Positions 1 to 44,804 of a stretch of 58,897 nucleotides of DNA are shown here, piece by piece; the stretch's first letter is position 1, and every line of letters begins with the position of its first letter. The notes beneath the pieces are model-generated. The model was not told the origin of the DNA. It saw nothing but the letters and a program-made list of their open reading frames with translations, and made no database searches. A program made the translations under genes and the position numbers. The stretch lies in contig CALBIL010000017.1 of NCBI GenBank assembly GCA_937892945.1, forward strand, positions 1 through 58,897, written 5' to 3'. Source of the stretch: an uncultured euryarchaeote (GTDB lineage: Archaea; Thermoplasmatota; Poseidoniia; Poseidoniales; Poseidoniaceae).

Positions 1-549
1 CACTGCATGTCCCTTTTTGACGATTTGTTGTCCCATAGTTTTTATGAATTCATTAGCCCAATTAATACTAAAATTATAGGAGGTTCTCAAAAATCTTCTA
101 TGAGCGATAAAATCCTCAATTGCAGGATATGGAGAACCTGTCGTCCCCCCCGCTTGTAGTTCAAACAGAACGATCCTACGATCTATCTGTCCGTTATGGG
201 GGATGTTCTGTGATGCAACATAATCAACGTTTCCAAATGCTCCCATCTTAACTTCAGGAGTGAAAGTTACTGTTACTCCACTATTAAAATATCTTTGAGA
301 TAATATCGAAAAGAAATTATCAACCTCAAATCGTTTTGGACAAATGATGACCCTCCTCGTGCCTTCAAAAAACCCCCCGGTCACGTTAACCGTACAAATC
401 CCAGTTCTGATTTCAGGTGTCGATTTTCTCGGCTTACCACACAAACTTTCCGTAAATCTGCATTCTTGGTGCCCCTGGCCAACTCTCGCATTTTGAGATT
501 GACAAGTCGGAATTTTCCAGCCAAACCATTCAACTGGGACTTTAGACAC
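1..549 (-). CDS. NotI-like type II restriction endonuclease (3' part beyond the window edge)
   Basis: Translating the minus strand from a GTG at 549 gives 183 open codons running off the window edge, so the C terminus is missing. Cysteines at about residues 16, 30, 37, 52 and 70 and the GICTVN...IICPKRF segment resemble the cysteine-bound iron site region of NotI (GVCVVN...LVCPNR). Further on, VLFELQAGG resembles the E-x-Q active-site strand of NotI, and the helix around NFSINWANEFIKTMGQQ resembles the part that follows it. NotI-family enzymes are PD-(D/E)xK nucleases cutting rare GC-rich sites. The GTG lies 7 bases after the methyltransferase stop, with a GGAG inside the end of that gene, suggesting coupled translation. 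An in-frame stop upstream and no ATG make GTG the only sensible start. The family call rests on remembered motif similarity, not on a search. Confidence 0.8.
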   Translation of the reverse strand, partial: MSKVPVEWFGWKIPTCQSQNARVGQGHQECRFTESLCGKPRKSTPEIRTGICTVNVTGGFFEGTRRVIICPKRFEVDNFFSILSQRYFNSGVTVTFTPEVKMGAFGNVDYVASQNIPHNGQIDRRIVLFELQAGGTTGSPYPAIEDFIAHRRFLRTSYNFSINWANEFIKTMGQQIVKKGHAV

Positions 550-556
550 ACGTGCG

Positions 557-1690
557 CTATGGGTTCTCCGCTGATATTACTTTCTCCATTCTTGAGTTTG
601 CGATATCTATGTACTTTTGACTTACATCAAAACCAATTCCTTTTCTTTTGAGTTCAACGGCAGCGACGATGGTGCTACCAGTTCCCATAAAGGGATCGAG
701 GATAATCCCTTCCTCTGGGCAAGTTGCTTTAATGGGTAGTTGGAGTAATTCAGTAGGAAAGACCGCGTAATGAGCATCCTTTCTCCATTCGTCTTCAGGT
801 GTGATATTCCATAATGTTCCAGGAATTAATTCTTCATCCTCAAGCAATGCAAAAGCAGCAATAAATTTATTTTCAAAATCGCTATGGTCTGAAACTGACC
901 AAATATCAGAGGGCACTTTTCCTTTAGATGTACTACTCATGAAATAATAGCCATTTTTATCCATCTCTCTTGCTCTGCCGCTCACCGTTTTTTTGTCACT
1001 GTGTAGAACTCTGTGCTCTCCTTTGATATACATTCTGAAATCATCTATCGTGCCCTCTTTCATTCTACCTAGCATCTGGTTGAGAGCTTCTGTAGCATTC
1101 TCTTTTTGTTTATCGGTAAGAACATTTGAATTCTTGATTTTTTTGTAATAGGATTGACCTGAAACCCCTGTCGATGAAATAATTCTGCCGTTTTTCATAG
1201 TTGGTTTCTTATGCCTTTCAATTCTAATTGCGTCAAGATCATAAAAGTATTTCTTTTTCTTTACGAAATGAAAGATATATTCATGATTATCTCTGAGTTT
1301 ATCTTTCGCACTTTGCGTTCCTTTCATTCTGTGCCAAATAACATCATTTCTCAAAATCCAACCATCATCCATCATTGCAAGGGCTACGCGCCAGGGCATT
1401 CCCATAAGATTCTTGTTGACATATTTATCACCCAAATTTAGCCATAGTGAACCTGTTTTCTTTAGTTTTGTCTTAAGTATTGAAAAAATATTAACCATGT
1501 TAGAGACGTATTCTTCTGGTTTTTTTTCCATTCCGAGCAGAAATTCCACATTAGTATCTTCAACATCATATTCTCTTTGCTTCCAATATGGCGGAGACGT
1601 GATTATTGTATCAATGCTCTCGTCATCGAGTTCTAGGCCTAGTTTCATACAGTCTCCAAGTCGGAATTCGAAAGAAGAAGATGGTCCCAT
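557..1690 (-). CDS. DNA methyltransferase of the restriction-modification pair (beta-type, probably N4-cytosine)
   Basis: This S-adenosylmethionine-dependent DNA methyltransferase should protect the sites cut by the adjacent NotI-like nuclease. Catalytic motif IV (TSPPYW, residues 31-36) lies near the N terminus. The AdoMet-binding motif I (DPFMGTGST, about residue 332) is near the C terminus, which is the beta-class order. An SPPY/W motif is more typical of N4-cytosine than N6-adenine enzymes, but the base cannot be fixed from sequence. The middle (about 150-260) would be the target recognition part. I start at the ATG at 1690 because MGPSSSFEFRLGD is a normal lead-in; an in-frame ATG at 1756 would run into the palindrome array. 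It is the first gene of the pair, with the nuclease 7 bases downstream. Confidence 0.93.
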   Translation of the reverse strand: MGPSSSFEFRLGDCMKLGLELDDESIDTIITSPPYWKQREYDVEDTNVEFLLGMEKKPEEYVSNMVNIFSILKTKLKKTGSLWLNLGDKYVNKNLMGMPWRVALAMMDDGWILRNDVIWHRMKGTQSAKDKLRDNHEYIFHFVKKKKYFYDLDAIRIERHKKPTMKNGRIISSTGVSGQSYYKKIKNSNVLTDKQKENATEALNQMLGRMKEGTIDDFRMYIKGEHRVLHSDKKTVSGRAREMDKNGYYFMSSTSKGKVPSDIWSVSDHSDFENKFIAAFALLEDEELIPGTLWNITPEDEWRKDAHYAVFPTELLQLPIKATCPEEGIILDPFMGTGSTIVAAVELKRKGIGFDVSQKYIDIANSRMEKVISAENP

Positions 1691-1741
1691 AAGTTCCAAT
1701 CGATGGCGACCGTAAATAAAGCATATGTCATCGTAATGCGC

Positions 1742-1829
1742 CCATCCAACACCCATGTAACAGGCATCTCATGGATGGGTACCCATGCGACACACATCTC
1801 ACACATGGGTGTCGCAAGGGTTTGGATGG
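1742..1829. promoter_or_regulatory. Nested palindrome array upstream of the methyltransferase gene
   Basis: The region carries a perfect 12-base palindrome ATGGGTACCCAT (1775-1786). It also has a hairpin-forming pair GCGACAC (1787-1793) / GTGTCGC (1809-1815), an outer pair CACCCATG (1750-1757) / CATGGGTG (1804-1811) and a still wider pair CCATCCAA (1742-1749) / TTGGATGG (1822-1829). The CCCAT/ATGGG box therefore occurs four times in alternating orientation. The array begins about 50 bases upstream of the methyltransferase start and lies between it and the end of the acyltransferase gene. An operator controlling the restriction-modification genes is the likeliest role; a bidirectional terminator or cruciform structure is an alternative. 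No controller gene is visible next to it. Confidence 0.6.
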
Positions 1830-1970
1830 ATGTTGGGTCAAGAGTTAAACCTAACAAGGCATTAGAATCTAATATGGCCGAAGTAGAGTACCCTTCTTGC
1901 ACTGAAACAGTAGACCTTGCCAGTCATTCAAAAGGTAAATGTCAATTCCATTCGTACCGTCATATCTTAT

Positions 1971-23003: not shown

Positions 23004-26000
23004 ATGGCTGTAACACGAGTAGAGGTGACGCCCAAACAAGGCGAAGGAATGCGAGATGTACGCGGCGATGTCGTCCGACGCCAACTGATGGCAGACCACA
23101 ATATCAAGGTCGATGAGGTACGTTCAATCAACGGGTTTTTGATTAAATCCAATCTTGAAAAGTCCGAAATCACAGAGCGCGTGGATGATCTTTTTTCAGA
23201 CCCAATTATTGAGGACGTTCTTACCAACACACTGTTTCTTTCTTCTTCAGAACATTTTCCAACTTCCCCGGATGCCGCAATCACAATTGGATTCAAACCT
23301 GGCGTAACCGATAACCCCGGTAGTGCAGCCTATGATGGATTCAAAACTCTTTTTCCACACCATGACCACCAAAGCGACGCTTCGATTTCAACCTATCACA
23401 CCTACGCCTTTTTCGGTTTACCTGACGATGTGACCGTCGAATGGCTCGCATCAACTCTTCACAACAAACTCATCCAACGTGCCGTAACTGCAGACGCGAA
23501 AGGGTGTTTAAACGCCCAATGGCCGTCGATAGACTATCCCGAAAAACCACCACAAATCCGTACCCCCCCTCAAAGAATGGACCTCGAAATTTCAGATGAA
23601 GAGCTTCTCTCGCTTTCCGAATCAGGTCTTTTGGCCCTGAACCTCGAAGAAATGAAAACAATTCAAGCCCATTACCGTGATGAGGCCATCCACCAATCTC
23701 GTGCAGCAGTAGGCATTGTCGCCGATGCCCCAACCGATGTCGAACTCGAATGTCTTGCTCAAACCTGGAGCGAGCACTGCAAACACAAAATTTTTGCATC
23801 GAAGATACACCATATCGACCCGGAAACCGGAGAAGATTCAGTGATCGATTCAATTTTCAAGACTCATATTATGAAGCCGACACACGATATGCAAAAGGAA
23901 GTTGACTGGCTTCTTTCAGTGTTCCATGATAATTCTGGCGTCATCGCTTGGGATGATGATTGGAGCGTATGCATGAAAGCAGAAACACACAACTCACCTT
24001 CAGCTCTTGACCCTTACGGCGGTGCAATGACTGGTATTGTAGGGGTCAATCGCGATATCCTCGGGACGGGGCTTGGTGCCCGGCCAATTGCAAATACTGA
24101 CGTGTTTTGTTTCGGCCCTCCAAATTGGGAAGGAGAGTTGCCAGACAATCTCTTCCACCCATCACGTGTTTTCCGAGGCGTTCATGCAGGCGTACGAGTC
24201 GGTGGGAATGAATCTGGTATTCCAACAGTAAACGGGGCAATCGTCTTTGATGACCGCTATATTGGAAAACCTCTCGTCTATTGTGGGACGGTTGGAATTA
24301 TGCCAAGAACACTCCCTGATGGTCGAGAATCACACATCAAAACCCCAACCGCCGGCGACATTGTTTACATGGTCGGGGGCAGAGTTGGTTACGATGGAAT
24401 TCATGGTGCAACATTCTCCTCACTCGAACTCACAGAAGAATCTCCTTCAAGTGCAGTGCAGATTGGAGACCCAATCACACAAAAGAAAATGCTTGACATG
24501 GTCCTTGAAGCAAGAGATGCGGGGTTGATCTCATGCATCACCGATAATGGAGCAGGCGGACTTTCCTCTTCGATTGGAGAGATGGCAACCTATACCGATG
24601 GGTGTGAAATTGATCTTGCAAAGGTTCCTTTGAAGCAGCCAGGATTATCCGCCTGGGAAATACTCGTATCAGAGAGCCAAGAGCGTATGACAATTGCAGT
24701 CCGACCTGAAGACTGCGCAGCTTTTGATGCGATGGCGCAACTCCATGAAGTTGAAGCAACCCCCGTTGCAACCTTCACCAATACGGGAATGTTCCACGTC
24801 AAATACGAAGATGAAACCGTGGCCTATCTTTCAATCGATTTCCTTCACGATGGAGTCCCTCAACTCCAACTTGAATCGGAATGGCATACGCCAACTCCTG
24901 AACTTTTTACCCCTGAAACAATTTCTTTACCTGAAAAAGCCGGCCATTCCAATCTTCTCTTGCGAATGCTTGCACAACCAAATATTGCTTCTAAAGAATC
25001 ATGGGTTCGACAATACGACCATGAAGTCATTGCCCAAACCGTAGTCAAACCATTCGTCGGCGTGGAAAGAGACGGCCCCGGTGACGCAGGCGTCATTGCG
25101 CCAATCCATGGAGACCCCCACGGGTTGGTAATTTCTTGCGGCATCGCACCGAGATATTCCGACCTCGATGCTGGAGCAATGGCGGCCGCCTCAATCGATG
25201 AAGCGGTTCGTAACGCAGTATGTGCTGGAATCAATGTTGACAAAATGGCAGGCTTGGACAACTTTTGCTGGCCAGATTCAATTGAATCAGTAAAGACGCC
25301 TGATGGCAAATACAAACTCGCTCAATTGGTTCGGGCAAATCGCGAACTTGAACGCGTTTGCAGAGCATATCGACTTCCCTGTGTCTCTGGAAAAGATTCG
25401 ATGAAGAATGATTACGGAACGGGCGAGAAGAAGATTTCAATCCCGCCAACGCTCCTTTATTCAGTCTTTGGCGACCAACCCGATGTACGCTTCACCGCCA
25501 CGAGTGATTTCAAAAAACCAGGCGAAATAGTGTATCTTGTTGGTGTATCAAAAGAAGAATTAGGTGCATCAGAACTCTCCTTTATGCTTCGAGACAGTGG
25601 AGAGACAAACGGCATCGGCGGCCAGGTTCCATTGTTGCCAAATCCAGAAATCAACATCACTACCTACCGGGCGCTTTCGACAGCGATTCAGTCAGGACTC
25701 ATTCGAACCGCTCACGATTGTTCAGAAGGCGGTGTTGCAGTTGCAGCAGCAGAAATGTGTATCGGAGGAAGAGTTGGTGCCGACATCGATATTGATGGCA
25801 CAGGCGATGCAAGTGTTTGGTCTCGTCTTTGGGGCGAATCACTCGGTCGATTTTTAGTTGGAGTACAGCCAGAAAACGAAGCTGACTTCATCAAATGGAT
25901 GACAGGCCATCCGATCACAATACTCGGCACAGTTACCGAATCAGAAAATCTTACCATTTCAGATGGTTATGACGTTCTTATTGATGTTGAAACCAATTCA

Positions 26001-43022: not shown

Positions 43023-44804
43023 ATGCGTATCGCCGTCTTCCTTTCGATGTTGATTTTCCTCGGCCCACTTTCGGGTTGCTTTGGGGCAGAATCTTCTCAA
43101 TCAGAAGAAGATGAATCGATGCAATACCCTACGGAATGGGAGCGCCATACGCTTGATTGGAATTGGACAGATAGTTACTCCTATGTGTTACAACCTGGCC
43201 CATATACGGCTCTCGAAGTCCAAGAAGCTACGTTTGAGGTTGACACATCAGAGGTATGGGAAACAGGGCCCGCTACAGCCAATGTACACTTGTCATATTG
43301 GTTACCTTCGAACACAGAAATAGGCGAAACAGTCCCTGTCATCGCAGTCGTTAGTCCTTATTTTTCGTTTGGCCAACCCGGGGACGAATCCGGAGCAACC
43401 AACGTCGTTGGCGGCGGCCGCGGCGAATTTATTTACGATAATTACATTCCACACGGCTATGCATTTGCTCAAGTATCTGTATTCGGAACTGAAGAATCTT
43501 CAGGATGTTTCGATTATCGCGGAGAAGGAGAAGGCTGGGGCATTCATCAAGCGGTTGAATGGCTCGGTACACAAAACTGGTCCAATGGAAAAGTAGGACT
43601 GTATGGAAAATCATACGAGGGCGCAACACAGTGGGAGGCAGCCGTCCATGGCAGCGAACACCTTGCAACCATCGTTCCAATTTCAGGCACAACTGGACTC
43701 CACCCACTTCTCTACAAGAATGGAAGTGCAGAGGCTCGTAGCCAAGTGATGCACATGAATTATTTTGGCAGTACTGTTGATTATAACGGCGAAGATCTGG
43801 ACAACATTTGCCCTGATATAATCGAAGGCCTCTTTGCAGGCCCAGTGACGTACGGCATGGGTGAATTGGACCCTTATATGGCGAACTATTACGAAGAAAG
43901 AGAACATATTTCAAAGGCACTTACCAACTATAACGGCAGTGTTTACTGGGTTCAAGGAATGCAGGATTGGAACGTTGACCCGCACCAAGTTTTCCCGTGG
44001 TACCAGATGTTTATCGATGCAGGTTTTGATGTTCGAGGCATGCTTGGCCAATGGGAGCACAACTATCCAGACCAATGGTCAAAGCATAATGCGCAAGAAA
44101 GCGGATACGGCGGCGAAGCGATTGAAAACATGACGCGGTGGGATTGGGGCCAAGATTTGTTTGAATGGTTCGAGTATTACTTGAAAGGAATCGGAGAGAA
44201 GCCAGAACTCCATGCTCAAATTCAACGCAACGACGGGCAATGGCGAATCGAAGATACTTGGCCGCCGCTTGACCGAATCTCAACCGAAGTACCACTCGAT
44301 ACCTGCGTTCAAACCGGAACTCGAGTGCAAGGAGTTTCTGGCTCTGGCGGAAGCGTGAGTGGCGTAGTGATTGAATGCGACGCACTCAGCAGTGACGTCG
44401 ACATCCACATTTCTGGACTCACAACACTTCACCTCGAAGTACAAGCTGCTATGGATGGAGGACAAATCTTTGTCGAGATTCAAGATGCAGAAACCAACCT
44501 CCGTATCGGCCATGCAACCATGGACATTCGCTACCATCAAGGTGGTAGTGACCCGACCACTGTGTTACCCGGTCAAAGCCTCACGATGCTCATGGAATTC
44601 CAAGCCATTGATGCTCTCTTGCCTGCAGGACATGGAATTCGCCTTGTACTGACAGAAACAGGAGAAGACTACCTTGCTCCTGCTTGTGGAGTCTTGTGCC
44701 CAATTACAGTGAACGGAGGCATCCTTTCCGTGCCACACATCGATCGTGATGGAAGCAATGTTTTGATTACTCCACAAGGCGAAGATGCTGCCAATAATCA
44801 GTAA
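43023..44804 (+). CDS. CocE/X-Pro dipeptidyl-peptidase-type hydrolase, lipoprotein
   Basis: This 593-residue secreted lipoprotein (lipobox LSGCF, cysteine about 19) has an alpha/beta hydrolase of the CocE/NonD family with the nucleophile in GKSYEG (G-x-S-x-G, about 202) and the His in GQWEHN. A C-terminal jelly-roll domain (about 440-590, VVIECDALSSD) is typical of X-Pro dipeptidyl-peptidases and related esterases. It probably cleaves proline-containing dipeptides or esters outside the cell. ATG 43023 precedes the signal peptide; in-frame ATGs at 43011, 42996 and 42966 are alternatives. The end overlaps the convergent HTH-CBS gene by 7 bases. Confidence 0.9.
   Translation: MRIAVFLSMLIFLGPLSGCFGAESSQSEEDESMQYPTEWERHTLDWNWTDSYSYVLQPGPYTALEVQEATFEVDTSEVWETGPATANVHLSYWLPSNTEIGETVPVIAVVSPYFSFGQPGDESGATNVVGGGRGEFIYDNYIPHGYAFAQVSVFGTEESSGCFDYRGEGEGWGIHQAVEWLGTQNWSNGKVGLYGKSYEGATQWEAAVHGSEHLATIVPISGTTGLHPLLYKNGSAEARSQVMHMNYFGSTVDYNGEDLDNICPDIIEGLFAGPVTYGMGELDPYMANYYEEREHISKALTNYNGSVYWVQGMQDWNVDPHQVFPWYQMFIDAGFDVRGMLGQWEHNYPDQWSKHNAQESGYGGEAIENMTRWDWGQDLFEWFEYYLKGIGEKPELHAQIQRNDGQWRIEDTWPPLDRISTEVPLDTCVQTGTRVQGVSGSGGSVSGVVIECDALSSDVDIHISGLTTLHLEVQAAMDGGQIFVEIQDAETNLRIGHATMDIRYHQGGSDPTTVLPGQSLTMLMEFQAIDALLPAGHGIRLVLTETGEDYLAPACGVLCPITVNGGILSVPHIDRDGSNVLITPQGEDAANNQ

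What the first reader, a model, noticed from the sequence alone, without database searches (positions are those of the whole stretch)
1..1690. NotI-like restriction-modification system in a marine planktonic archaeon
The edge gene shows the NotI pattern of cysteines, a GICTVN/ICPKR segment and an E-x-Q active-site strand, next to a beta-type TSPPYW methyltransferase. NotI-family nucleases are few, and their 8-base specificity and iron site make each new branch informative. The window itself contains GCGGCCGC at 25182-25189 and 43414-43421, so if the specificity is the same, these sites should be methylated.
Basis: partly seen in the sequence, partly recalled or inferred. Interest (0 to 1): 0.62.

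Follow-up and report, generated by a model that had tools for sequence, protein, structure and literature searches.

The report
Archaeal NotI-family restriction-modification pair, truncated

Summary
Window 1-549 (-) encodes 183 N-terminal residues of a nuclease cut off by the contig end. Window 557-1690 (-) encodes a complete beta-class TSPPYW methyltransferase. The fragment alone scores nothing in Pfam, NCBIfam or PADLOC, yet it belongs to the NotI family. About 50 relatives 36-47% identical to it occur across many phyla, and all 17 full-length ones scanned match PF12183. Four cysteines and the E...D...E-x-Q residues are shared. A profile built without the window finds NotI alone in the PDB (E 1.3e-6). 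A relative modelled at pLDDT 96 has NotI as its only significant fold match. Nuclease and methyltransferase trees split into the same two clades, so they are a co-inherited pair. It is absent from 145 sampled relatives, which indicates lateral gain. Not upheld: the family is not rare (299 relatives in one scan), and nothing supports GCGGCCGC specificity; the two window sites are close to chance, and 59 of 60 sampled genomes of the genus carry such sites. Verdict: a divergent new member of a known kind, of low to moderate interest.

The parts
1..549 (-). NotI-family restriction endonuclease, N-terminal 183 aa (GTG start at 549; gene runs off the contig; relatives are about 280-297 aa)
340..462 (-). 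Cys4 metal-site region: C30 (460-462), C37 (439-441), C52 (394-396), C70 (340-342)
   Evidence: invariant in 75/75 homologues; aligned to the Cys-rich N-terminus of NotI 3bvq
154..255 (-). PD-ExQ active-site core: E99 (253-255), D109 (223-225), E130 (160-162), Q132 (154-156)
   Evidence: invariant or 74/75 in homologues; E130/Q132 align with NotI E-I-Q at residues 182-184
557..1690 (-). beta-class amino-DNA methyltransferase, 377 aa from the ATG at 1690 (the ORF is open to 1756)
   Evidence: 44-54% identical to methyltransferases beside NotI-family nucleases
1583..1600 (-). methyltransferase catalytic motif IV TSPPYW
   Evidence: TSPPY[WFY] in 66 of 68 partner methyltransferases
674..697 (-). 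methyltransferase AdoMet-binding motif I, DPFMGTGS

Best explanation
A Type II restriction-modification pair, acquired laterally by an archaeon. The endonuclease belongs to the NotI family: a PD-(D/E)xK-type nuclease with an E-x-Q catalytic strand and a structural Cys4 metal site. It should cut a specific, probably palindromic DNA site in unmodified incoming DNA, as a dimer using Mg2+ like NotI. The neighbouring beta-class TSPPYW methyltransferase modifies the same site in host DNA, most likely as N4-methylcytosine, so that only foreign DNA is cut. Shown by computation: gene content, family membership, active-site and metal residues, co-inheritance of the two genes, patchy distribution. Inferred: cleavage, metal identity, m4C chemistry, palindromic site, defence role. 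Unknown: the recognition sequence.
For: tblastn to plasmid proteins annotated 'NotI family restriction endonuclease', E down to 2e-7; those tested match PF12183. 299 genome relatives, about 50 of them 36-47% identical to the fragment. All 17 full-length relatives scanned match PF12183, best 2e-11. Profile A3, which does not contain the window, hits only NotI (3bvq/3c25) in the PDB at E 1.3e-6, and the window aligns to A3 with hhalign E 1.9e-37. AlphaFold model of a full-length relative, pLDDT 96.4: NotI is the only fold match below 1e-3, E 1.7e-8, TM 0.71. Invariant Cys4 and E/D/Q. The partner methyltransferase is adjacent in most relatives of this clade at 45-54% identity to the window's, and both gene trees show the same deep split. 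TSPPYW is the N4-cytosine methylase signature (general knowledge, PROSITE PS00093), and N4-cytosine methylases are among the PDB hits.
Against: The fragment itself does not reach PF12183, and its own low-confidence model (pLDDT 59) finds no NotI. The C-terminal third was not found in the assembly, so intactness of the gene is unproven. The window's nuclease is the most divergent member of its clade (median identity 40% against 56% among the others). Specificity is untested.
Confidence: 0.9

Rival explanations
1. A decaying system: the nuclease is inactive or truncated in the organism and the methyltransferase acts as an orphan.
For: The nuclease is cut by the contig end and is the most divergent of its clade; the pair is absent from sampled congeners.
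Against: 183 codons open without a stop; all metal and catalytic residues kept; its methyltransferase is also a long branch, so the divergence is shared rather than nuclease decay.
Confidence: 0.08
2. True NotI isoschizomer: cuts and protects GCGGCCGC.
For: Same fold and active site as NotI; two sites in the window.
Against: Only 13% identity over the fold alignment. Site counts are ordinary: 7 in this genome (reversed-pattern control 12) against a median of 6 in congeners, none of the sampled ones having the pair. NotI-family members even pair with a different methyltransferase class (C5), so one shared specificity is unlikely.
Confidence: 0.07
3. Contig-edge chimera or contaminant: the R-M pair belongs to another organism.
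For: Lower GC (38.8% against 46.4% for the window); position at the contig end; closest relatives mostly bacterial.
Against: The adjoining MBOAT and SGNH-type genes have orthologues up to 76% identical, in the same order, in genomes of the same genus. Four other genomes of the phylum also carry NotI-family genes. Low GC and a bacterial origin are expected for a laterally gained pair.
Confidence: 0.06

Closest known systems
NotI (PF12183; PDB 3bvq, 3c25)
   Same: Same fold (TM 0.71 for a full-length relative of the window protein), Cys-rich N-terminus, E-x-Q active-site strand
   Different: About 13% identity; NotI is longer (383 aa chain against about 290); no evidence that the target is the same
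'NotI family restriction endonuclease' plus beta methyltransferase on Klebsiella, Serratia and Acinetobacter plasmids (NZ_CP045693, NZ_CP026384, NZ_CP055291)
   Same: Same two genes in the same order, nuclease about 29-33% and methyltransferase about 44% identical
   Different: They belong to a sister clade in both trees
R-M pairs of the window's own clade in Bacteroidota, Kapaibacteria, Ignavibacteria, Planctomycetes, Natronincola and Candidatus Burarchaeum (L008-L062, L039)
   Same: Nuclease 36-47% and methyltransferase 45-54% identical; same metal and active-site residues
   Different: The window's nuclease is the most divergent; many of these have the methyltransferase convergent rather than upstream
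Beta-class N4-cytosine methyltransferases such as M.PvuII (1boo)
   Same: SPPY catalytic motif (general knowledge) and detectable similarity
   Different: Distant; the target recognition region is not comparable

Membership tests
NotI restriction endonuclease family (PF12183) | Profile match of the protein itself | tested here: inconclusive
   No match for the 183-aa fragment or its genome. The gene is incomplete here; full-length relatives cut to the same length score only 18-29 bits, five of eight below the cutoff of 22, so the full-length protein could not be tested.
NotI restriction endonuclease family (PF12183) | Profile match of full-length close relatives | tested here: met
   17 of 17, best E 2e-11
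NotI restriction endonuclease family (PF12183) | Detectable homology to NotI itself | tested here: met
   Profile of relatives without the window hits 3bvq/3c25 only, E 1.3e-6; window to that profile, hhalign E 1.9e-37
NotI restriction endonuclease family (PF12183) | NotI fold | tested here: met
   Met for a full-length relative; the fragment's own model is too poor to judge
NotI restriction endonuclease family (PF12183) | Four cysteines for the structural metal | tested here: met
   C30, C37, C52, C70 in the window, invariant in 75/75; metal identity (iron in NotI) not testable
NotI restriction endonuclease family (PF12183) | PD-ExQ active site | tested here: met
   E99, D109, E130, Q132; E-x-Q aligned with NotI 182-184
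NotI restriction endonuclease family (PF12183) | Complete gene and cleavage at a defined site | not testable with these tools
   C-terminal third is off the contig and not found elsewhere in the assembly
Recognition of GCGGCCGC | Site avoidance or methylation | tested here: inconclusive
   Counts are ordinary for the genus; methylation not testable
Beta-class amino-methyltransferase of a Type II R-M system | TSPPYW motif before the FxGxG motif, Pfam N6_N4_Mtase | tested here: met
Beta-class amino-methyltransferase of a Type II R-M system | Cognate pairing with the nuclease | tested here: met
   Adjacent in most relatives of the clade; same two-clade split in both trees

The most novel reading that the evidence does not exclude
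The window's clade (more than 50 pairs across many bacterial phyla and at least two archaeal lineages) recognises a target other than GCGGCCGC, possibly also long, giving a new rare-cutting specificity in the NotI fold.
Probability: 0.3. Interest if true: 0.45.

Novelty: new member of a known kind. Interest (0 to 1): 0.22.

Why it matters
If active, it adds a divergent archaeal branch to the NotI family and shows that these pairs move between bacteria and archaea. The larger point is that the family is widespread in genomes, so it is a source of candidate rare-cutting enzymes whose targets are mostly not known from the material seen here. It does not change the understanding of restriction-modification.

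Tried and rejected
Direct Pfam, NCBIfam, PADLOC and PDB scans of the fragment found nothing, and a phage search found nothing. Folding the fragment gave a poor model and a meaningless fold search. No further piece of the nuclease turned up in the rest of the assembly by profile or DNA. Guessing specificity from palindrome avoidance in 419 kb of this genome against 400 kb of a congener gave no distinctive 6- or 8-mer. No paper using the phrase 'NotI family' was found in the library and the NotI structure paper is not held. The Acinetobacter NEB 394 paper gives no motif for the NotI-family plasmid system in the passages found. A marine methylome study reports CGCG, GGTAG and TCGCGA motifs for MGIIA archaea, with no mention of GCGGCCGC in the section read (PMC9516812); whether the present genome is MGIIA was not tested.

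Full report
What is there. The window is contig 17 of a 2.03-Mb, 100-contig assembly that carries ribosomal protein L21e, which rang only in the archaeal control genomes. At its left end, on the minus strand, lie a complete methyltransferase gene (557-1690, with a possible but less likely start at 1756) and, 7 bases downstream, the first 183 codons of a nuclease gene that leaves the contig.

Is the nuclease NotI-like? Taken alone, the fragment matches nothing in Pfam, NCBIfam or PADLOC and nothing credible in the PDB. tblastn against plasmids finds eight records, 27-33% identical, seven of them annotated as 'NotI family restriction endonuclease', and the plasmid proteins tested match PF12183. 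A genome scan with the resulting alignment finds 299 relatives, about 50 of them 36-47% identical to the fragment. Every full-length relative tested matches PF12183 (17 of 17). Relatives cut to the same length score only 18-29 bits, five of eight falling under the cutoff, so the window's silence is explained by truncation plus its own divergence. A profile of relatives that excludes the window finds NotI, and nothing else, among solved structures (E 1.3e-6), aligning the Cys-rich N-terminus and, weakly, NotI's E-x-Q strand at residues 182-184. The window aligns to this profile with E 1.9e-37. A full-length relative modelled with 75 sequences (pLDDT 96.4) has the four NotI chains as its only significant PDB matches.

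Residues. C30, C37, C52, C70, E99, D109 and Q132 are invariant in 75 of 75 homologues and E130 in 74. That a glutamine replaces the usual lysine in NotI, and that NotI holds iron in a Cys4 motif, is stated in PMC4081073. Iron in the present protein is inference.

The partner. The methyltransferase is beta class: TSPPYW at aa 53, DPFMGTGS at aa 354, N6_N4_Mtase E 7.5e-48. By general knowledge the TSPPY motif points to N4-methylcytosine. It is about 44% identical to the plasmid partner methyltransferases and 45-54% to those of its own clade. Nuclease and methyltransferase trees both separate the window's clade from the plasmid clade, so the two genes travel together. Exact placement of the window inside its clade is unsure because its branch is long.

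Distribution and origin. The nuclease is absent from the 145 sampled relatives (one marginal match, E 0.003 over 40 residues, is not credible) and the methyltransferase has only short, weak matches there. Four other genomes of the phylum carry NotI-family proteins, two of them in the plasmid-type clade and two very divergent. The neighbouring MBOAT and SGNH-type genes are orthologous to those of congeners, up to 76% identical and in the same order, which argues against a misassembled foreign contig. In two congeners (G025 and G034, about 76% identical over MBOAT) other genes occupy the position beside MBOAT. Local GC is 38.8% against 46.4% for the window. The simplest reading is lateral gain next to a variable surface-polysaccharide-type gene cluster; the direction and donor are not resolved.

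Specificity. Nothing here supports GCGGCCGC. Two copies in the window are close to chance (8 of 100 shuffles). The genome has 7, the median of the other 59 sampled genomes of the genus is 6, and 59 of 60 have at least one. k-mer avoidance shows no distinctive candidate. In another branch the NotI-family nuclease sits beside a C5-type cytosine methyltransferase, so the family has been combined with different modification chemistries. A marine methylome study reports CGCG, GGTAG and TCGCGA in MGIIA archaea (PMC9516812), none of which can be tied to this gene.

Verdict. The family assignment is right, but rarity and shared specificity are not upheld. It is a divergent member of a known kind.

Noticed in passing
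window 1735-1845: Two tandem 30-bp units (1751-1780, 1781-1810), each bounded by ACCCATG...ATGGGT, inside a larger inverted-repeat array between the methyltransferase start and the MBOAT gene. The strand folds better than all 200 shuffles (z -3.8) and the unit occurs nowhere else in the assembly. It could be an operator of the pair or the end of a mobile element.
   Followed up: partly
L005 1758-3852 (Sphingobium plasmid pSY2, NC_016000): A NotI-family nuclease sits beside a C5-type DNA cytosine methyltransferase instead of a beta-class one, suggesting that the family has swapped partner methylases.
   Followed up: no
L036 3986-4849 (Anaerolineales): The catalytic glutamate of E-x-Q is lysine (KLQ) in this one of 75 homologues; possibly an inactive nuclease.
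   Followed up: no
L095-L098: Four other genomes of the window's phylum carry NotI-family proteins: two in the plasmid-type clade, two very divergent ones without this methyltransferase nearby in the DNA held.
   Followed up: partly
L088-L093: Six IMG/VR contigs encode NotI-family nucleases, several with a partner methyltransferase, so the pairs may travel on viruses or in misassigned host DNA.
   Followed up: no
window and L133-L150 (419 kb of the window's genome): GATC is strongly under-represented (758 against 2016 expected), more than in the congener G056, and AGCT, CTAG and CGCG are also low in both.
   Followed up: no
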